Of a stretch of DNA of 64,000 nt, positions 47,263 to 64,000 are shown one piece after another; positions within the stretch are counted from its first letter, which is position 1; each line of letters begins with the position of its first letter. The stretch is from positions 434,001 to 498,000 of the forward strand of contig NZ_JH600279.1 in the NCBI RefSeq assembly GCF_000245335.1, given 5' to 3'. The notes under the pieces are model-generated. The model had not been told where the DNA came from. It saw nothing but the letters and a program-made list of their open reading frames with translations, and did not search any database. The stretch is from Bacillus mojavensis RO-H-1 = KCTC 3706 (GTDB taxonomy: Bacteria > Bacillota > Bacilli > Bacillales > Bacillaceae). Position numbers and translations under genes: made by a program.

Positions 47263-48432
47263 TTAAACAGGTGTTTTCAAAACCATCTGATACTGATCGT
47301 GCAGCGCCCTGGCATTTTTCCCGGCGTCATATTGAGTGTGAATGATTTGATATAATTCATCCGCCACTTCCGGCTTCCATATTTGATCCTGTGCGTATAA
47401 AGAGATCGTGTTTGCTAAGGCTTGAGCTGATTTCGGTTCAATCAGCAAATGGCGGTGTTTGCCGAATAATGATGCCACTCCTCCGACATCTGTACAGATG
47501 ACAGGAACCCGCAGTGCCAGTGCCTCGATTACAACTGTCGGCATTCCTTCGCTATAAGAAGGGAGCACGAACATATCTGAGGCGAGCAAATAATCTCTCA
47601 CCCTGTGATTCGGCACTTGGCCTGTCACAATATGCCCCTTTTGCCTCAGCAAAGATTTTGCGGGGCCGTCTCCGACATAAACGGCTCGAGGCGCTTCCTC
47701 CATCATCTCAATGGCTTCTGACAATTCAAAAATGCCTTTTTCCTTAACAAGCCTGCCCACATAGACAGCAAGGCGCTCGTCAAGCGGGAGTCCAAGGTTT
47801 TTTCTGATGTCTTCTTTTGTCTGCTCATTCTCCTGAAAACGGCTGAGCTGTATACCGATCGGTAAAACCGTACTGTCAAAACCGGAAAGTTTTTTGGTTT
47901 CTTCCTGAAGCTTTTCGCTGACTGCAAGAACTGCGGATGCGGAACCAACCGCAGTTTTGAAGGCTTTAAACGCACCTTTGCTGTAGTGCGGATAGACATT
48001 CACATCACTGCCATGCAAAGTCAAAATATACGGTATCCCGATTGTCTTTGCCACGACTGCCGCAGCCCCGCCCGACGGCATAGCAAAGTGCGCATGGATC
48101 AGATCAGGGGTTAAGTCATGCTGTTTAATGGTTTTTACCACAGCTGCCCCGATGCGCCGGTGTGGCTGGGCCCATTTCAGCTGGCCGGGAACAGCGGGAT
48201 AGAAAGGCCTGTAAACCGGTATTCCTTTCCGTATCTCATATTCTGGTCTGGCATCCTTTTTTCGATATGCCTTTTTCAGCATACGGACAGGCGCAGGGTG
48301 AAAAGGTCTTGGGCATATCACGGTGATATCCAGCCCGAGCTTCAGCAGCTCTTGCACCTGTGTTTCATGAAACACACCCTCTCCGGGTTTCAGACTGCTT
48401 GGATATACGCTTGTGATCCACAAAATCTTCAT
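47263..48432 (-). CDS. tuaC: TuaC, GT4 glycosyltransferase
   Basis: The 389-residue enzyme has an N-terminal KILWITSVYPSSLKPGEGVFHETQVQELLKLGLDI and acceptor motif ILTLHGSDVNVYPHY, and a C-terminal GT4 domain with YVGRLVKEKGI and EX7E in PSYSEGMPTVVIEALA. It starts with ATG 48432, overlapping tuaB by 4 bases. Confidence 0.94.
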   Translation of the reverse strand: MKILWITSVYPSSLKPGEGVFHETQVQELLKLGLDITVICPRPFHPAPVRMLKKAYRKKDARPEYEIRKGIPVYRPFYPAVPGQLKWAQPHRRIGAAVVKTIKQHDLTPDLIHAHFAMPSGGAAAVVAKTIGIPYILTLHGSDVNVYPHYSKGAFKAFKTAVGSASAVLAVSEKLQEETKKLSGFDSTVLPIGIQLSRFQENEQTKEDIRKNLGLPLDERLAVYVGRLVKEKGIFELSEAIEMMEEAPRAVYVGDGPAKSLLRQKGHIVTGQVPNHRVRDYLLASDMFVLPSYSEGMPTVVIEALALRVPVICTDVGGVASLFGKHRHLLIEPKSAQALANTISLYAQDQIWKPEVADELYQIIHTQYDAGKNARALHDQYQMVLKTPV

Positions 48433-57320: not shown

Positions 57321-58199
57321 ATGAAAAAAGTACGTAAAGCGATAATTCCAGCAGCAGGACTAGGAACGCGTTTTCTCCCGGCTACGAAAGCAATGCCGAA
57401 AGAAATGCTTCCTATCGTAGATAAACCAACCATTCAATACATAATTGAAGAAGCTGTTGAGTCCGGTATTGAGGACATTATTATTGTAACAGGCAAAAGC
57501 AAGCGTGCGATTGAGGATCATTTTGATTACTCTCCTGAGCTTGAAAGAAACCTTGAAGAAAAAGGAAAGATTGAACTCCTCGAAAAAGTGAAAAAATCTT
57601 CTAATCTGGCTGACATCCACTACATCCGCCAAAAAGAGCCTAAAGGACTTGGACATGCTGTATGGTGCGCTCGTAACTTTATCGGCGATGAACCTTTTGC
57701 GGTTCTGCTTGGAGACGATATCGTTCAGGCGGAAAAACCAGGATTGCGCCAGTTAATGGATGAATATGAAAGAACACTTTCTTCTATTATAGGTGTTCAG
57801 CAAGTGCCTGAAGAAGAAACTCACCGCTACGGTATTATTGATCCGCTGACAAGTGAAGGCCGCCGTTATCAGGTGAAAAACTTTGTTGAGAAGCCGTCTA
57901 AAGGCACAGCACCTTCTAACCTTGCTATCTTAGGCCGTTACGTATTTACGCCTGAGATCTTTATGTACTTAGAAGAGCAGCAAGTTGGCGCAGGCGGAGA
58001 AATCCAGCTGACAGACGCCATTCAAAAGCTGAATGAAATTCAAAGAGTGTTTGCTTACGATTTTGAAGGCAAGCGCTATGATGTCGGCGAAAAGCTCGGC
58101 TTTATCACAACCACTCTTGAGTTTGCGATGCAGGATAAAGAACTCCGCGGACAGCTCATTCCATTCATGGAAAACTTATTAAACAAAGAAGAAATCTAA
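57321..58199 (+). CDS. gtaB: GtaB, UTP-glucose-1-phosphate uridylyltransferase
   Basis: The 292-residue enzyme makes UDP-glucose for teichoic acid glucosylation, glycolipids and (via TuaD) UDP-glucuronate. Motifs [27 protein letters not shown] and [17 protein letters not shown], and [28 protein letters not shown] are typical. ATG 57321 is preceded by AAGGAAGGTG. A strong terminator follows, so the next genes (opposite strand) are separate. Confidence 0.98.
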
Positions 58200-58240: not shown

Positions 58241-58840
58241 TTATTTCAACATCAAGGTCAGAGTATGCTCTTCATTATCAACCGCAAAAACCTGATCAGC
58301 GATATTCCAAAAATCAGAAGTAGAAGTAAAATAATCTGGTTACGGCCTGCAGCAGAAATTGATAATCTCTGACTAGCACACTGATTGTAGAGTTAAACAA
58401 ACTAGAAGAAAACAATCATGCAGACTCAAATAGTAAATATATTGTATCCAATGCAAGCTAGGGTAATACCGCTTGCTAAAAGGACAATGACATAAACACC
58501 AATCATTACAAAATAACTAAATAATTTTGCAGTGAACGGATCGGAAAATTCATTTCGCAACCATATTGATCCGCTTAAACACTCTGTTTGATCCATCAAG
58601 AATCGTTGGGCTAATAAAAAAAAACGGCATCAAACCCGCCAGCATCCAAACGATAAAAGGCACTTGTCCGATACCTGTTATGACCGGCTTACTGTTGCGA
58701 ATCCTCGTACCAAATAGAAACCAGTACGCCAGCATTTGAATAAGAGGATTTTTTTTAAAAATATATAATACACCAATACAACTTAAATGATCTTTTGAAA
58801 GCACCGAATATTGTAACAGAGATGAAAGATTTTTTTATTT
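58241..58840 (-). pseudogene. tagG: Degraded relic of a TagG-type teichoic acid ABC permease
   Basis: On the minus strand fragments of one protein follow each other in the right order but in different frames. About 58837-58550 reads [18 protein letters not shown]... with [37 protein letters not shown] and [14 protein letters not shown]; then a TGA, overlapping ATG and a shift into [15 protein letters not shown]; then FVMIGVYVIVLLASGI; then 58397-58314 [22 protein letters not shown]; and DFWNIADQ down to 58241. This is the order of TagG/TarG, the permease that exports wall teichoic acid. There is no start codon or ribosome site, at least three frame breaks and no C-terminal half. It cannot work. 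Confidence 0.72.
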
Positions 58841-58932
58841 TTGATTAGTAATTAGCCTATTATTCAAATATAAACACACCTGCCGTTTTAGTAAGTCATT
58901 AAGTTTTATCTTATTTAGAATGAAAGAAAGGC

Positions 58933-58953
58933 CCGAAACTAAAGTAGTTTCGG
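58933..58953 (-). terminator. Terminator downstream of the glycosyltransferase operon
   Basis: A 9-bp stem CCGAAACTA with TAGTTTCGG around AAG, followed on the minus strand by GCCTTTCTTTC. Confidence 0.8.
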
Positions 58954-58981
58954 ACCGATTAATTTAAAAATTTTCTTGTTC

Positions 58982-60511
58982 CTAATTCAATACTTCTTCA
59001 AAGAGTTTTTTCCAATCATCTACTAATTTATTTTCACTAAATTTATCTGTAATCTTCATTGCTTCAATTGACATACTATTTCGCTTCTGAGAGTTATTCA
59101 ATAAATCAATGATAGCATTGGCTAACTCATTGATATCACCTTTTTGTACAATCATGCCATCAGTATTATGAGTGATAATATCTTTAGGTCCGTATTTGAA
59201 ATTATATGAAATAGGAACACAACCGGCTGACATACTTTCCATTAATGAGAGACATATCCCCTCATATTCAGAAGGGACAATAGATAAAGCTGAATTAAAA
59301 AATACCGAATATACATCGTCAGAAAATCCCTTTAATTCAACATTTTTCTCCAATTCTAAATCGGTAATTAACTTTCTTAAATTTAGTTCCTCAGAACCTC
59401 TACCATATAACTCCAATTTAGCTTCTGGAATTTGTTCCACTACTTTTTTAAATGCTTTAATGGCATGATCTTGGTTTTTAATTTTTTCATATCTTCCAAC
59501 TAAAACAACTTTCATTGCATCTCGTTTTACATTCTCTCTAACAACTTTCGGAGCATGGTGAGGTATGGCATAATACTTATCACTGTTTCCATATTGTGTA
59601 CCCACATCAGCTCTTTGTTCTTCCGTTAAAAATACAACGGCACTATACTCAGATATATGATTAAAAAAGTCTTTTTGATCATTTCTTATTGGGCTGCCAA
59701 GTAAATATGGTGCTGCAAAATGATTGCTATGAAAGGTATATATTACATTTAAATTTTTTATTTGACTTTCTAGTTTTTGAAGTTGAAGACGATTGAAACC
59801 ATATTCTGAAATTAACGCCATTTTCTTATCTTTTTCAACCAAAATATAATGTGCTAGCCAATAGTAGAGCATTTCCTTCTCATTCTTAAACTCAGCTTTA
59901 AAATGTCCATTTTCGTCAAAGTAAATAATTTGATTTGTAGCATTGCTTTTAGGATTTCTAGAAACTGTTAAAAAGCATTTCCCCTGCTTATTTAAATATA
60001 AAACTCTTACAGGTGAATTCGTGTTAAAATCCATATACTCCACTTTTCTAATATATCCTTTAGAATCAAACCATTCACGCTTTTCACGTGTGAAATTAGG
60101 TAACAAATGATCTATAAATAAAAGATCTCCTTCATCATTATACCATTTGAACTGTAAATAAAGACCTTCTTTATAACATCTATATACGTTTTTTCTTGTT
60201 TTATCCTGTATAGCAACCCATCCTTCTTCTTGTGGTTTGCGATCTATTTTTTTTCTATCATCTCTTTGCATATCATTACCCAATTCATTGTATAAATAAC
60301 GAACCGTTGTATTAGAGTTTAACTGGTTTGTATCTTGTAAGTAATTAATACTCTCATCATAATTGATATACCAATCGTGAACTAATATTTCATTTTCAAT
60401 ATTAGCTGCTGAAAAAGCGTTACTTCTTCTAATTACTGATGTTGCTAATCCTGTTGGTTTAGCTGGTATCCCACCAAACATAAGCATATATGTTTTAAAG
60501 CTTGACTTCAT
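58982..60511 (-). CDS. TarM/TagE-like teichoic acid glycosyltransferase
   Basis: This 509-residue protein has the build of the wall-teichoic-acid alpha-glycosyltransferases: an N-terminal Rossmann strand with MFGGIPAKPTGLATSVIRRSNAFS, an inserted beta-sheet domain (about residues 90-220, like DUF1975), an acceptor-side segment IYTFHSNHFAAPYLLGSP, and a GT4 donor domain with VVLVGRYEKIKNQDHAIKAF and the EX7E catalytic pair in PSEYEGICLSLMESMSAG (near 425). It is soluble, no signal peptide. Start ATG 60511 overlaps the previous stop as ATGA. Sugar (glucose or GlcNAc) and polymer are not decidable from sequence. The gene is visibly AT-rich compared with gtaB. Confidence 0.85.
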   Translation of the reverse strand: MKSSFKTYMLMFGGIPAKPTGLATSVIRRSNAFSAANIENEILVHDWYINYDESINYLQDTNQLNSNTTVRYLYNELGNDMQRDDRKKIDRKPQEEGWVAIQDKTRKNVYRCYKEGLYLQFKWYNDEGDLLFIDHLLPNFTREKREWFDSKGYIRKVEYMDFNTNSPVRVLYLNKQGKCFLTVSRNPKSNATNQIIYFDENGHFKAEFKNEKEMLYYWLAHYILVEKDKKMALISEYGFNRLQLQKLESQIKNLNVIYTFHSNHFAAPYLLGSPIRNDQKDFFNHISEYSAVVFLTEEQRADVGTQYGNSDKYYAIPHHAPKVVRENVKRDAMKVVLVGRYEKIKNQDHAIKAFKKVVEQIPEAKLELYGRGSEELNLRKLITDLELEKNVELKGFSDDVYSVFFNSALSIVPSEYEGICLSLMESMSAGCVPISYNFKYGPKDIITHNTDGMIVQKGDINELANAIIDLLNNSQKRNSMSIEAMKITDKFSENKLVDDWKKLFEEVLN

Positions 60512-61710
60512 TTAGTTGCACTCCATTCAGTTAAGTTATCTTTCTTATAATCTCTTTCTATATCTGCAAAAAGTTCTTCCCATTTTTTACCTATATTTCT
60601 AGTGGAATAGCGATCAACATTTAGAAAAGCCTGTTCTCCCATCTGTATGCGAATATTAGGATTCTCAATTAAATAGTTTATTGATTTTGCAAGTTTATCA
60701 ATATTCCCATTCTCAACTAATATTCCATCTACTCCTGATTTAATAATTTCAGATGGACCTTTCGGACAATCGAAACTCACAACAGGAACACCACATTGCA
60801 TTGCCTCAACTATAACCATTCCAAAACCTTCAAATCTTGAGCTTAATACATATATAGATGATTTAGCCAACTCTTTTTGTACGTTATTGGTAGCCCCCAT
60901 TAAAAACACATTATTATAAAGGCCTTCTTTATGAATTATATCTAGTAAATTATTTTTCTCACTACCGATACCGTAAATCTTTAATTTCCAATCTGGATGT
61001 TTTTCTACGACTTTACTAAATGATTTAATTAGTAAATCAAAACCTTTCTGTTCTGCTAAACGCCCGGCTGCAATAATAGTCTTGTCTTTTAGCGGTGATT
61101 TTATTGGTTCAATATCAGGAATAGAATTAGTAATTTTTTTAACTGTTAAATTGGAGTTTTTAAAAATATTCTTATAATCCTCAGTATCATCGTCAGTTAA
61201 AGTTAATAAATAGTCCAATTTAGGGTAATGTTTCATTATTGAATTTTGCATCCCCTTTGGATAAATAGAAAAATTCAAATGTTCCTGCCCTACTAAAACC
61301 ACCCTTTTATTAGCATATTTTGATGCAAATAAATTAAAACTTGGTCTGGTAGTAATTAATATCCCATTTTTAATTGTTTTTATAAAAGTATATAACTTTA
61401 TATCTGACATTAGTGAAAAAAAGTGAATTGCTTCTTCGTCTCTATGAATTAATTTTGTTTTTTTAGAAAGTAAGAAGTTTCCCAAACGGGCTTTTAAACT
61501 CCTTCCTTTTTTATTCCATGTAGTAACATCATGTAAGACAGTTATTTTTATACGAGGGTCAATAAAGAAGAACTCTTTTCTTTGTCTTTTAAATAAAGAT
61601 ATGATCTCTATCTTGTAACCTTTATCTACTAAATGATTGGCAGTATTAAGAACAGTCCTTACAGTCCCTCCCATACCATATATGTTCATTGTCAAGAAAT
61701 ATATTTTCAT
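60508..61710 (-). CDS. GT4 family glycosyltransferase
   Basis: The 400-residue GT-B enzyme has KIYFLTMNIYGMGGTVRTVLNTANHLVDKGYKIEIIS at the N-terminus (acceptor domain), and IIAAGRLAEQKGFDLLIKSFSKV, LKIYGIGSEKNNL and EX7E in SRFEGFGMVIVEAMQCGVPVVSFDCPKGPSEII in the donor domain. I start at ATG 61710 because GGGTGA lies six to seven bases upstream; a GTG at 61719 overlaps the previous stop. It lies between a TarM-like and a TagF-like gene with overlaps on both sides, so it belongs to the same polymer pathway. Substrate unknown. Confidence 0.85.
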   Translation of the reverse strand: MKIYFLTMNIYGMGGTVRTVLNTANHLVDKGYKIEIISLFKRQRKEFFFIDPRIKITVLHDVTTWNKKGRSLKARLGNFLLSKKTKLIHRDEEAIHFFSLMSDIKLYTFIKTIKNGILITTRPSFNLFASKYANKRVVLVGQEHLNFSIYPKGMQNSIMKHYPKLDYLLTLTDDDTEDYKNIFKNSNLTVKKITNSIPDIEPIKSPLKDKTIIAAGRLAEQKGFDLLIKSFSKVVEKHPDWKLKIYGIGSEKNNLLDIIHKEGLYNNVFLMGATNNVQKELAKSSIYVLSSRFEGFGMVIVEAMQCGVPVVSFDCPKGPSEIIKSGVDGILVENGNIDKLAKSINYLIENPNIRIQMGEQAFLNVDRYSTRNIGKKWEELFADIERDYKKDNLTEWSATK

Positions 61711-61715
61711 GATTA

Positions 61716-64000
61716 TCACCCAATTTCAAATATGCGTTTAATTACTTCTTCAGATGCTTGTCCACTATCATACTCACAGTATTTCTCAACAAAATAATTA
61801 TAATTACTTTTATACAGATGGTTAAACTGATTAATATTCCCAATCACTTTAAACAGGTCATTTTCTCTAGTTACAATAGGGCCCGGAGCTTCTTGATTAA
61901 AATCAAAATAAAACCCTCTCAACGCCGAAGAATATTTATTAATATCGTAAGCAAAAAAGATCATTGGCTTTTTAGAGTTAGCAAAATCAAACATAACAGA
62001 AGAATAATCTGTTATTAAAATATCACTGATTATATATAAGTACTTAATATCATCATAATTAGAAACATTATAAATGATACCTTTATAATTACTTACTTGT
62101 GCACGAATAGCATCTCGATAATGAAGTCTTACTAACAAAACATATTCATCACTAAATTGCTCCACAAAATGGTCTAAACTAAATTTAAACTCATAAGGTT
62201 CGTTTTGTTTTTTATTATGAAAGTCATCATCTCTCCATGTAGGAGCGTACAAAATTACTTTTTTATCAACAGGTATATTTAACTCTTCTTTTATGTTTCT
62301 AATAACATTGTCTTTATTTGTTTGATAAAAAATATCATTTCTTGGATATCCACTTTTAATAATCTCTTTATCAAACTGAAAAGCACTTCTATAGACCGAT
62401 GAAGTAAAACTGTTTGGTGATACAGCAAAGTCCCATCGTTTATTCCTCCTAATCAACTCTGGTGAAGTATTTTCTTTATAAGAAGGAGATTCTTGACTAA
62501 TATCAAAACCTAACTTTTTTAAAGGTGTTCCATGCCATGTTTGAACATGAACAGCCTTTTTTCTTTTTTTATAAAAATCAGGGAAATTCCCATTGTTTAT
62601 AAAGTATTTAGACCTTGCCATATAATAGTAATACTTTAGCGAGTAGGGCTTAACAATTATGGTATTTCCCTCCATAGGTTTATAAATATTGTTGAGTACC
62701 CAAATATTTTTATAGCCACTACCATGCATGTCTACTACTTTTTCGTAAATTGCCCTTGGATTACAAGAATAACTTTTGCCATGAAAACTTTGATAAATTA
62801 TCATCTTGTTATTAATCGGTAGAAATTTATTGAATAAATTATATATAATATTTTTGTTCTTAATTAATACTCTTTCAAGGAAAGAATTAGCTTTATTTTC
62901 TTTACCAATAAATGAGAATACTCCCTTTTCTGGATCAATATTAAGTTGGATCTTAATATATTGATCATTAGACAATTGAATTTGGAGGATAGATAAATCA
63001 AAATTAATATTCACCAAAATCGCCTTTAACTCTTTGTTAGTTCTTGAATCACTTGTAAATTCAAATGAATATTCTAAGGGTGTTTTCAGAGTTTTATTAA
63101 TAACAATGTTTCCCGGTAAATTGACTTCCTTACCTTTTGGTAGTGAAAAATGCATATTCGCCCTATACTCTCCTGAGAGATCATTGTAATTTAAACTTTG
63201 AATATTAATAAAACCTTCCAAACTAAAAGTATCATTAATTATTTTGAAATTGTTGATTTTCTTTTGTGTTGCTGCTTTACGAATTAATAAGGATAAATTA
63301 TTGTGTATCGTATAGTATGGTTTAACAGCGTATAATTCCTTAGAATTGGTTTTTATAAAGTGTTGTGGAAAATTAAAAACTTCTTGTTTATTTTTAATCT
63401 CATCTAAAACTTTAGAAAGTGGATATATATTGAATTCGGACTCAATAAATATATCCCATATTCCTAAATCTAATTTATTGTTAGATATTAATTCATCTAA
63501 GTTTAATAACAGATTTGATTGTTTATTAATTGAAATAGACACAATTTCATTGGAAGACCGTTTCCTTAAAATGATATTTTCTATCCTCTCACCTTTTTTT
63601 TGTGAGAATAACTCCCCGCTAATTTCTAATTGTCTTGTATCATCAAATTTAAGTTTATCTACTTCGAAATGATTACTAATTTTTCGAATACTTATTTGTA
63701 TCATTCGCTGGTTTTTTTGCCTATAATTCTCTAGAAAAACTTTGTGGCTATTTAAAGATATAACTTCATTAGTTGCAATTTGATCATCTATTGTCAATTG
63801 TGATATGAACTGTGTTCCTTCAAAGAATCTTGTGCGTATATACATATTTAATTTTGATGAATCAAATTCATTAATTATTGTATTTAAATCTATCTCTATT
63901 TTAAAATATGATTCATTATTCTTTTCAAAGATTAAAATATCTTGTTCATAGGACTGATTTTCATCATTCTCCAAAATAATTTTTGATTCTTCAGGTAACC
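61716..64000 (-). CDS. TagF-like teichoic acid polymerase, N-terminus beyond window
   Basis: At least 760 codons, open to the right edge, with no stop before 64000; TTG 63974 has no ribosome site, so the true start is outside. Residues from about 375 to the C-terminus form a CDP-glycerol glycerophosphotransferase domain: HVQTWHGTPLKKLGFDI, RWDFAVSPNSFTSSVYRSAF, SGYPRNDIFY, VILYAPTWRDD, RLHYRD and DILITDYSSVMFDFANSKKP with the active-site His residues of TagF. The first 370 visible residues are a beta-rich charged region (KIEIDLNTIINEF..., YRANMHFSLPKG), not a GT2 domain. GgaB and other poly(sugar-phosphate) polymerases share this C-terminal domain; substrate unknown. Confidence 0.85.
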   Translation of the reverse strand, partial: LPEESKIILENDENQSYEQDILIFEKNNESYFKIEIDLNTIINEFDSSKLNMYIRTRFFEGTQFISQLTIDDQIATNEVISLNSHKVFLENYRQKNQRMIQISIRKISNHFEVDKLKFDDTRQLEISGELFSQKKGERIENIILRKRSSNEIVSISINKQSNLLLNLDELISNNKLDLGIWDIFIESEFNIYPLSKVLDEIKNKQEVFNFPQHFIKTNSKELYAVKPYYTIHNNLSLLIRKAATQKKINNFKIINDTFSLEGFINIQSLNYNDLSGEYRANMHFSLPKGKEVNLPGNIVINKTLKTPLEYSFEFTSDSRTNKELKAILVNINFDLSILQIQLSNDQYIKIQLNIDPEKGVFSFIGKENKANSFLERVLIKNKNIIYNLFNKFLPINNKMIIYQSFHGKSYSCNPRAIYEKVVDMHGSGYKNIWVLNNIYKPMEGNTIIVKPYSLKYYYYMARSKYFINNGNFPDFYKKRKKAVHVQTWHGTPLKKLGFDISQESPSYKENTSPELIRRNKRWDFAVSPNSFTSSVYRSAFQFDKEIIKSGYPRNDIFYQTNKDNVIRNIKEELNIPVDKKVILYAPTWRDDDFHNKKQNEPYEFKFSLDHFVEQFSDEYVLLVRLHYRDAIRAQVSNYKGIIYNVSNYDDIKYLYIISDILITDYSSVMFDFANSKKPMIFFAYDINKYSSALRGFYFDFNQEAPGPIVTRENDLFKVIGNINQFNHLYKSNYNYFVEKYCEYDSGQASEEVIKRIFEIG

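What the first reader, a model, noticed from the sequence alone, without database searches (positions are those of the whole stretch)
58982..64000. AT-rich three-gene teichoic acid cassette in the slot where 168 carries ggaB-ggaA
Seen: three genes overlapping by a few bases (TagF-like polymerase, GT4, TarM/TagE-like GT4) lie beyond gtaB in the opposite direction, and are far poorer in G+C than their neighbours (62041-62100 has 11 G/C of 60, while 48061-48120 in tuaC has 36). Known: B. subtilis 168 has ggaB-ggaA for the minor poly(glucosyl GalNAc phosphate) here, and W23 strains have tar genes. Inference: a horizontally exchanged polymer locus giving a different wall polymer or decoration, which would alter phage reception.
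Basis: partly seen in the sequence, partly recalled or inferred. Interest (0 to 1): 0.75.

Follow-up and report, generated by a model that had tools for sequence, protein, structure and literature searches.

The report
Teichoic acid cassette in fossil locus
Next to its working cell-wall teichoic acid genes, this Bacillus carries an unusual four-gene set, probably for a second wall polymer, inside the decayed remains of a different teichoic acid gene locus, which helps explain how these bacteria swap surface polymers.

Summary
The cassette has four genes, not three, and the window end cuts the polymerase (935 aa; the fourth gene, 397 aa, lies at 64520-65713). All four are AT-rich (28% G+C), overlapping and open. 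The polymerase is not GgaB: its catalytic domain groups with TagF/TarF, away from the GgaB group. Low G+C is, however, usual for this slot, ggaAB of the presumed 168 genome included.

The cassette is flanked by decayed tarG/tarH on one side and by decayed tarF, tarD, the tarD-tarA promoter region and a truncated gtaB on the other. These are relics of a W23-type ribitol locus beside the intact glycerol (tag) locus. A scar with one tarA'::gtaB' junction is in the presumed 168 genome and three others of the genus, holding ggaBA or a third cassette; here the junction itself is deleted. So the slot is the old tarG-tarF slot.

Most likely function: a second wall polymer. The GroP-type polymerase plus a TarM-like GT4 resemble a split form of Gram-negative TagF-like/GT-B polymerases, which make poly(glycosylglycerol phosphate). 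That is "type II" teichoic acid, whose pathway a 2024 paper calls uncharacterised. The chemistry is inferred. Cassette swapping in B. subtilis was already published (PMC8753576).

The parts
57321..58199 (+). intact gtaB (UDP-glucose supply), left border of the slot
   Evidence: 91.5% DNA identity to gtaB of G035 (presumed 168)
58241..58307 (-). relic of tarH/tagH 3' end
   Evidence: last 66-67 bp: 86.6% to G033 tarH, 89.4% to own tagH, 91.0% to G035 tagH, so this short piece does not itself point to tar
58289..58819 (-). relic of tarG (tar-type)
   Evidence: 77.2-85.7% to seven tar-type tarG genes; 74.4% to G035 tagG, 72.0% to own tagG; 4-12 stops per frame
58930..58956 (-). terminator-like hairpin just after the last cassette gene
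   Evidence: 12 pairs, 6 G-C, then a T-rich tail
58982..60511 (-). 509-aa GT4, similar to TarM and to SdgA/SdgB-type enzymes, predicted retaining glycosyltransferase
60508..61719 (-). 403-aa GT4, TarM-like; close relatives lay next to Glyphos_transf polymerases in all 10 genomes examined (own included)
61716..64000 (-). 935-aa TagF-like polymerase; it starts beyond the window end, at window-scale position 64523: beta-rich N-terminal part with TarS_C1 matches, Glyphos_transf 563-933. Further parts beyond the window, on the same scale: 397-aa fourth cassette gene 64520-65713(-); relics of tarF 65846-66468(-), tarD 66584-66960(-), tarD-tarA promoter region 66979-67376, gtaB 3' part 67375-67897(+); intact tagH-tagG-tagF-tagE-tagD(-) and tagA-tagB(+) 67922-77703
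   Evidence: Polymerase. 397-aa gene. tarF relic 68.1% to G033 tarF over 611 columns, own tagF 67.3% over a shorter 300 columns and lower score, 15-25 stops per frame. tarD relic 85.6% to G033 tarD, 68-69% to six other tar-type tarD genes, 76% to tagD, 7-15 stops per frame. Promoter region 79.8% to G033 over 411 columns. gtaB remnant: stops per frame. tag locus 75-98% protein identity to G035

Best explanation
This is an alternative minor wall-teichoic-acid cassette lying in the tarG-tarF slot of a decayed W23-type (ribitol) tar locus, beside the intact 168-type (glycerol) tag locus that makes the main polymer. Proposed mechanism: TagO/TagA/TagB (and perhaps a few units from TagF) build the usual lipid-linked linkage unit. 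The 935-aa enzyme adds glycerol phosphate from CDP-glycerol (TagD), alternating with an alpha-hexose from UDP-glucose (GtaB) or a related donor added by the 403-aa GT4. The result would be a poly(glycosylglycerol phosphate), i.e. type II, chain. The 509-aa GT4 decorates it, the 397-aa protein holds chain or enzymes through a TarS/TarK-type beta domain, and TagGH export it. SHOWN: gene anatomy, fold families, conserved catalytic histidines, relic identity, a junction shared by four other genomes, pairing of the GT4 family with polymerases. INFERRED: that the scar here has the same founding event, donors, backbone chemistry, expression, export, effect on phages.
For: Locus history: the tarG, tarD and tarF relics score higher against tar than against tag genes, and the tarD-tarA promoter region is tar-type. 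Tar-type genomes G011, G014, G032, G033, G036, G038 and G039 hold their cassette between tarG and tarF. One tarA(1-~50)::gtaB(237/241-) junction is spanned in 4 of 44 genomes of the genus (G005, G009, G035, G016), and G000 shows the same stretch with a deletion across it. Function: all four cassette genes are open among relics with 4-25 stops per frame. Polymerase: Glyphos_transf 387 bits over 4-367/367; best solved relatives are TagF 3L7I/J (Foldseek rank 1); H664 and H801 align with TagF H444 and H584; it groups with TagF/TarF/W1166, not GgaB, TarK/TarL or TagB. In G383 and G344 its 957-aa homologue sits between tagD and a 60-61%-identical GT4, with gtaB at the other end. Relatives of the 403-aa GT4 lie next to a Glyphos polymerase in 6 of 6 genomes with a match (of 397 searched, own included) and in G013, G036, G038, G039. 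The Cps3D structure 8QOY fuses a TagF-like domain (matched by the polymerase, residues 375-734) to a GT-B domain (matched by the 403-aa GT4, residues 942-1115). PMC5974469 ties that architecture to alpha-linked poly(glycosylpolyol phosphate).
Against: No expression or chemistry was available. Promoter-like sites are no more frequent than in shuffles (46 against 57.6). In 7 of 10 genomes with a close relative of the 403-aa GT4 the adjacent polymerase is of the GgaB-like group (G013, G036, G038, G230, G274, G414 in the tree; G039 by BLAST best hit), so this GT4 family is not specific to glycerol phosphate. The fork joining the 935-aa domain to TagF/TarF is only 88/84 (92/89). The short tarH/tagH relic is nearer to tagH of G035 (91.0%) than to G033 tarH (86.6%), and the tarF relic is hardly more identical to tarF than to tagF. 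The 397-aa model has mean pLDDT 46 and the 935-aa model 62, with much of its N-terminal part low. A mobile carrier was not shown (no DNA match in plasmids).
Confidence: 0.55

Rival explanations
1. The cassette does not make a new backbone: the two GT4 enzymes only decorate the poly(glycerol phosphate) made by TagF, and the 935-aa enzyme is an auxiliary primase/extender.
For: Both GT4 proteins are closest among solved structures to TarM and to 7EC1/7EC7 (SdgB by recall; NCBIfam SdgA/SdgB are the best families), which decorate chains or proteins; TagE-like enzymes (26.5% and 31.0% identical to the two) decorate poly(GroP) (identities; function: established knowledge).
Against: In the 10 genomes examined a close relative of the 403-aa GT4 lies beside a polymerase, and in G230 and G274 that polymerase is the only long Glyphos frame found. 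Own TagE is open and 80% identical to that of G035, so decoration is already served.
Confidence: 0.2
2. The polymerase transfers a sugar-1-phosphate, as GgaB does, and the product is a poly(glycosyl sugar-1-phosphate).
For: The 168 enzymes of the same slot make poly(GlcGalNAc 1-P) (PMC11841062, passage), and most partners of the 403-aa GT4 family are GgaB-like.
Against: The domain is split from the GgaB group with 100/100 support in both trees, has 41-42% identity to TagF against 26.5% to GgaB, and its homologue in G383/G344 is adjacent to tagD.
Confidence: 0.12
3. A silent or decaying leftover of the old tar operon: its promoter region went with tarD and the cassette is no longer expressed.
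For: Upstream tarD/tarF and downstream tarG/tarH are all broken; no clear own promoter; in G009 even ggaA is split into two frames.
Against: Four open frames totalling 2244 codons at about 28% G+C, kept overlaps, a GGAGG stretch before the first gene seen by eye and a terminator-like hairpin after the last.
Confidence: 0.13

Closest known systems
B. subtilis 168 ggaB-ggaA locus (minor poly(glucosyl GalNAc 1-phosphate))
   Same: Same slot between gtaB and tagH, same strand, same low G+C (28-29%), same kinds of flanking tar relics and gtaB remnant.
   Different: Other genes: GgaB is a GT2-Glyphos protein and GgaA is taken as GT2 from PMC8753576 Table 1; here a Glyphos protein without GT2, two GT4 and a beta-domain protein.
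W447/W1166 cassette of a tar-type genome (G033) and of G016
   Same: Same slot; in G016 the tarA'::gtaB' scar; G033-like tarD/tarF alleles also flank the window's cassette.
   Different: W447 is a DUF6270 protein and W1166 a GT2-Glyphos fusion.
Cassette of G383/G344 (another family of the order): gtaB, one or two DUF6270-type genes, GT4, 957-aa polymerase, tagD
   Same: 957-aa polymerase 36% over full length (G383), GT4 60-61%, weak match to the 397-aa protein.
   Different: No 509-aa GT4 in the cassette; DUF6270-like parts present (by BLAST to W447); G+C 35-36%.
TagF-like/GT-B capsule polymerases (Cps3D, Cps7D, C. jejuni HS1.09)
   Same: TagF-like domain plus TarM-like or retaining GT.
   Different: Fused in one protein and Gram-negative; here two separate genes in a Gram-positive wall locus, and no reaction has been tested.
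WTA cassette swapping in B. subtilis (PMC8753576)
   Same: Already reports exchange of whole WTA cassettes, variable gga-type genes between gtaB and tagH, and a devolved tarF-like region in 24 of 35 168-type strains.
   Different: That paper calls the gga position in tar and tag strains non-orthologous and, in the parts I read (1-4 of 6), does not mention the tarG/tarD/tarA relics or this cassette.

Membership tests
ggaAB minor teichoic acid locus | GgaB (GT2 + Glyphos) and GgaA (GT2) proteins | tested here: not met
   No GT2 domain reported in any of the four proteins; GgaB 26.5% over 200 aa only
ggaAB minor teichoic acid locus | position between gtaB and tagH within tar relics | tested here: met
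PF04464 CDP-glycerol glycerophosphotransferase (TagF-like) | domain score above cut-off and active-site histidines | tested here: met
   387 bits against cut-off 22.1; H664 and H801 align with H444 and H584 of 3L7I and are invariant in an 8-protein alignment
TagF proper (WTA type I poly(GroP) polymerase) | groups inside TagF clade | tested here: not met
   Separate clade with 957-aa homologues (100/99), outside TagF and TarF
TarM/TagE-type GT4 | GT4 domain and similarity over the full length including the N-terminal half | tested here: met
   509-aa protein aligns 7-505 with TarM 4WAC and 20-505 with 7EC7; the 403-aa protein aligns with TarM from residue 44 on
TagF-like/GT-B polymerase (type II-like chain) | TagF-like and GT-B domains working together | tested here: inconclusive
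   Both domains present as adjacent genes, also in relatives; reaction not testable here
W23-type tar locus (relic) | tarG, tarF, tarD and tarD-tarA region in order, tar-type alleles | tested here: met
   clear for tarG, tarD and the promoter region, weaker for tarF, not for the tarH end

The most novel reading that the evidence does not exclude
The cassette encodes a Gram-positive pathway for type II wall teichoic acid, a poly(glycosylglycerol phosphate): a GroP polymerase and a TarM-like GT4 acting as a two-gene version of the fused Gram-negative TagF-like/GT-B polymerases, with a stand-alone WTA-binding beta-domain protein. It sits in a fossil tar locus whose relics act as homology arms for swapping minor polymers between species.
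Probability: 0.33. Interest if true: 0.72.

Novelty: new variant of a known kind. Interest (0 to 1): 0.5.

Why it matters
PMC11666461 (2024, passages seen) states that pathways for WTA types II-IV are uncharacterised, and PMC5974469 (passages seen) says it remains to be studied whether TagF-like homologues play a role in type II. This cassette and its relatives give clonable gene pairs to test that. The scar would explain why 168 carries ggaAB between gtaB and tagH: the genes sit in the remains of a ribitol locus. It also turns the W23/168 difference into a traceable recombination event, with surface-polymer cassettes swapped inside it.

Tried and rejected
Rejected: (1) tandem duplication of the own tag locus as the source of the relics: the tarG and tarD relics are clearly nearer to tar-type than to own tag genes. 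(2) GgaB identity. (3) Low G+C as proof of separate origin. (4) A plasmid source: no DNA match; 66 plasmid records matched the protein, none over 80% of it; the 15 listed all cover the C-terminal part. (5) A promoter of its own: no excess over shuffles. (6) An RNA element: none at gathering score. The direction of the founding event could not be decided: a tar strain that gained a tag locus, or a tag strain that gained a tar piece by a homologous crossover in gtaB and an illegitimate one in tarA, both give the same map. In the first tree the domain cuts were uneven and one row (1205 aa) was a long branch; it was rebuilt with C-terminal cuts (at most 395 aa, TarL 410), that row dropped and five rows added; the grouping of the 935-aa protein did not change.
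Full report
OBSERVATION. The two quoted G/C counts are exact. The window is G000:C3:434001-498000 of a 3.96-Mb genome in 29 contigs, so I read on past 64000. The polymerase is longer than seen (935 aa, 61716-64523) and a fourth overlapping gene of 397 aa lies upstream of it (64520-65713). G+C over the four genes is 28.1%, against a median of 41.6% in 183 sliding windows of the 98 kb held and 34.2% in the lowest window not touching the cassette. The drop is real, but cassettes in this slot are generally AT-rich: ggaB/ggaA of G035 28.8/28.1%, of G005, G011 and G014 27-29%, W447/W1166 28-29%, 1104-1107-aa polymerases 28-29%, and the cassettes of G006, G013, G022 and G029 26-36%.

SURROUNDINGS. 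Beyond the cassette comes a 168-type tag locus, tagH-tagG-tagF-tagE-tagD and divergent tagA-tagB, 75-98% identical at protein level to G035. G035 is presumably B. subtilis 168: contig length 4,215,606 and gene order, by recall. Between cassette and tag locus, and between cassette and gtaB, there is decayed DNA. BLAST identifies it as relics of tarH (3' end) and tarG on the gtaB side, and of tarF, tarD, the tarD-tarA region and the 3' part of gtaB on the tagH side. The tarG relic is 81.6% identical to G033 tarG (77.2-85.7% to seven tar-type genes) but 74.4% to G035 tagG and 72.0% to the genome's own tagG. The tarD relic is 85.6% identical to G033 tarD but about 76% to tagD. Two pieces are less telling: the tarF relic is 67-75% identical to G033 tarF and 67% to own tagF over a shorter stretch, and the 66-67-bp tarH end is nearer to G035 tagH (91.0%) than to G033 tarH (86.6%). 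Stops per frame are 4-12 (tarG), 15-25 (tarF), 7-15 (tarD) and 6-10 (gtaB).

THE SLOT. I fetched the corresponding region from 20 other genomes of the genus and assigned genes by BLAST to G035, G033 and own proteins (G035 itself). In seven tar-type genomes the order is gtaB, tarH, tarG, [cassette], tarF, tarD, then tarA-B-I-J-K-L. The cassette varies: W447+W1166 (G033), ggaB+ggaA (G011, G014), a GT4 plus a 1104-1107-aa polymerase (G036, G038, G039), or four other genes (G032). G008 is tar-type without a cassette or tarF there. Tag-type genomes G015 and G002 have no cassette: gtaB, tagH, tagG, tagF in a row. In G006, G012, G013, G022 and G029 a cassette lies between the tagG-like gene and tagF, with no scar seen; in G027 the order differs. 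G005, G009 and G035 are tag-type, carry ggaB/ggaA, and have the tar relics (G009 lacks the tarG relic and its ggaA is split). G016 has W447+W1166 (open), a tarG of nearly full length but with 10-19 stops per frame, relics of tarF/tarD and the gtaB remnant. Its contig ends there, and tagF- and tagD-like matches lie on another contig.

ONE SCAR. In G005, G009, G035 and G016 the first ~50 bases of tarA are fused to gtaB at about base 237-241, at the same point of the alignment. A junction query matched across the junction in those 4 of 44 genomes of the genus. In G000 two pieces of that query (6-159 and 308-370) lie side by side, i.e. the junction itself is deleted there. The gtaB remnant of G016 is 87-89.5% identical to gtaB of G005, G011, G033, G035 and G038 but only 81% and 69% (two pieces) to its own gtaB, which suggests that the scar itself moved between species. 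The remnants of G005, G009 and G035 are nearest to their own gtaB, apart from one short piece of the G009 remnant, while that of G000 is nearest to G011 (87.1%) and only 81.7% to its own. In G000 the inner relics (tarD, tarF) resemble G033 while the outer ones (tarG, gtaB, tarA side of the promoter region) resemble G011, so the exchanged unit seems to have included tarD-tarF with the cassette. For G000 a shared founding event is inferred, not shown, because its junction is gone.

WHAT THE GENES ARE. Polymerase: Glyphos_transf 563-933, 387 bits, and two TarS_C1 stretches. The best solved relatives are TagF entries 3L7I/J/M, also by fold; H664 and H801 align with H444 and H584, named as catalytic in PMC11666461. 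In trees of Glyphos domains (32 rows; 36 rows) it forms a 100/99 clade with 957-aa proteins of G383 and G344. It lies among TagF/TarF/W1166 (fork 92/89 and 88/84) and is separated 100/100 from GgaB and the 1105-aa type. GT4 of 509 aa: closest to 7EC1/7EC7 (SdgB by recall) and TarM structures over nearly full length. GT4 of 403 aa: closest to TarM. 397 aa: no Pfam family above its cut-off, found in 1 of 80 genomes of the family, its own. Its low-confidence model (pLDDT 46) matches TarK and TarL N-terminal domains, the TarS C-terminal part and RmlT as best hits, and it shows weak similarity to the polymerase N-terminus (21.6% over 305 columns by BLAST without composition correction; hhalign gave no significant match).

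RELATIVES. The N-terminal 560 residues of the polymerase match in 4 of 397 genomes sampled from the order: own, G383, G344 and weakly G014. In G383 the neighbourhood reads gtaB, two DUF6270-type genes (the second also aligned in part with the 397-aa protein), a GT4 60% identical to the 403-aa one, the 957-aa polymerase, tagD; G344 is alike, but its second gene (438 aa) lacks the DUF6270-like part. The 403-aa GT4 has matches at E<=1e-60 in 6 of 397 genomes. All 6 are beside a Glyphos polymerase, as are those of G013, G036, G038 and G039. That makes 10 genomes, own included. In 7 of them the partner is GgaB-like: G013, G036, G038, G230, G274 and G414 by the tree, G039 by its best BLAST hit. In G230 and G274 the only long Glyphos frame found is this partner; both are draft genomes.

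MECHANISM. PMC5974469 (passages) describes Gram-negative polymerases in which a TagF-like domain plus a TarM-like GT-B domain goes with alpha-linked poly(glycosylpolyol phosphate), and says little is known of type II WTA biosynthesis. PMC11924219 (abstract and outline) shows the two activities in adjacent domains of one protein. PMC11666461 (passages) says pathways for types II-IV are uncharacterised. The cassette's polymerase and 403-aa GT4 match the two domains of Cps3D separately. I therefore propose a glycerol-phosphate/hexose chain built on the tag linkage unit and exported by TagGH. The donors and linkages are inference. The GgaB-like partners of the same GT4 family, the modest tree support and the absence of expression data count against certainty.

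NOVELTY. PMC8753576 (parts 1-4 of 6 read; term search) already shows swapping of WTA cassettes in B. subtilis, variable gga genes between gtaB and tagH, and a devolved tarF-like remnant in 24 of 35 168-type strains. It calls the gga positions non-orthologous in tar and tag strains. What I did not find there is the full tar relic set, the tarA'::gtaB' junction shared across species, or this cassette. Literature searches: all in an open-licence library and seen as listings except for the papers named above and PMC11841062 (passages). The 2002 paper on W23 tar genes is recalled only and was not read, so an earlier notice cannot be excluded.

VERDICT. A real, open-reading, rare minor-polymer cassette of a known kind, in an informative setting. 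Interest is moderate as it stands and higher if the type II reading is proved.

Noticed in passing
L121 6112-7448 and 2170-3099 (G009): ggaA is split into two frames (254 and 115 aa), and a 309-aa frame without a match in my local set lies where the tarG relic is expected.
   Followed up: no
L122 4804-6147, L124 11049-13142, L146 2744-6965, L147 3800-5881: DUF6270 (PF19786) proteins, of unknown function, recur in minor teichoic acid cassettes of the slot (Pfam match in L122 and L124) and in the G383/G344 cassettes (by BLAST to the L122 protein).
   Followed up: partly
L174 5819-18001 (G274) and L172 (G230): Teichoic acid loci whose only long Glyphos polymerase found is paired with a relative of the 403-aa GT4, suggesting this pair makes the main wall polymer there.
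   Followed up: partly
L173 928-12157 (G414): Locus with gtaB, two different long Glyphos proteins, a GT4, a TarF-like gene, tagG-, tagH- and tagA-like genes in one row.
   Followed up: no
L129 10613-11210 (G016): gtaB remnant much nearer to subtilis-clade gtaB (87-89.5%) than to the genome's own gtaB (81% and 69%), pointing to transfer of the scar between species.
   Followed up: partly
L124 9665-16426 (G032): A tar-type slot with a four-gene cassette (GgaA-like, DUF6270, GT2, GgaB-like Glyphos) unlike the others.
   Followed up: no
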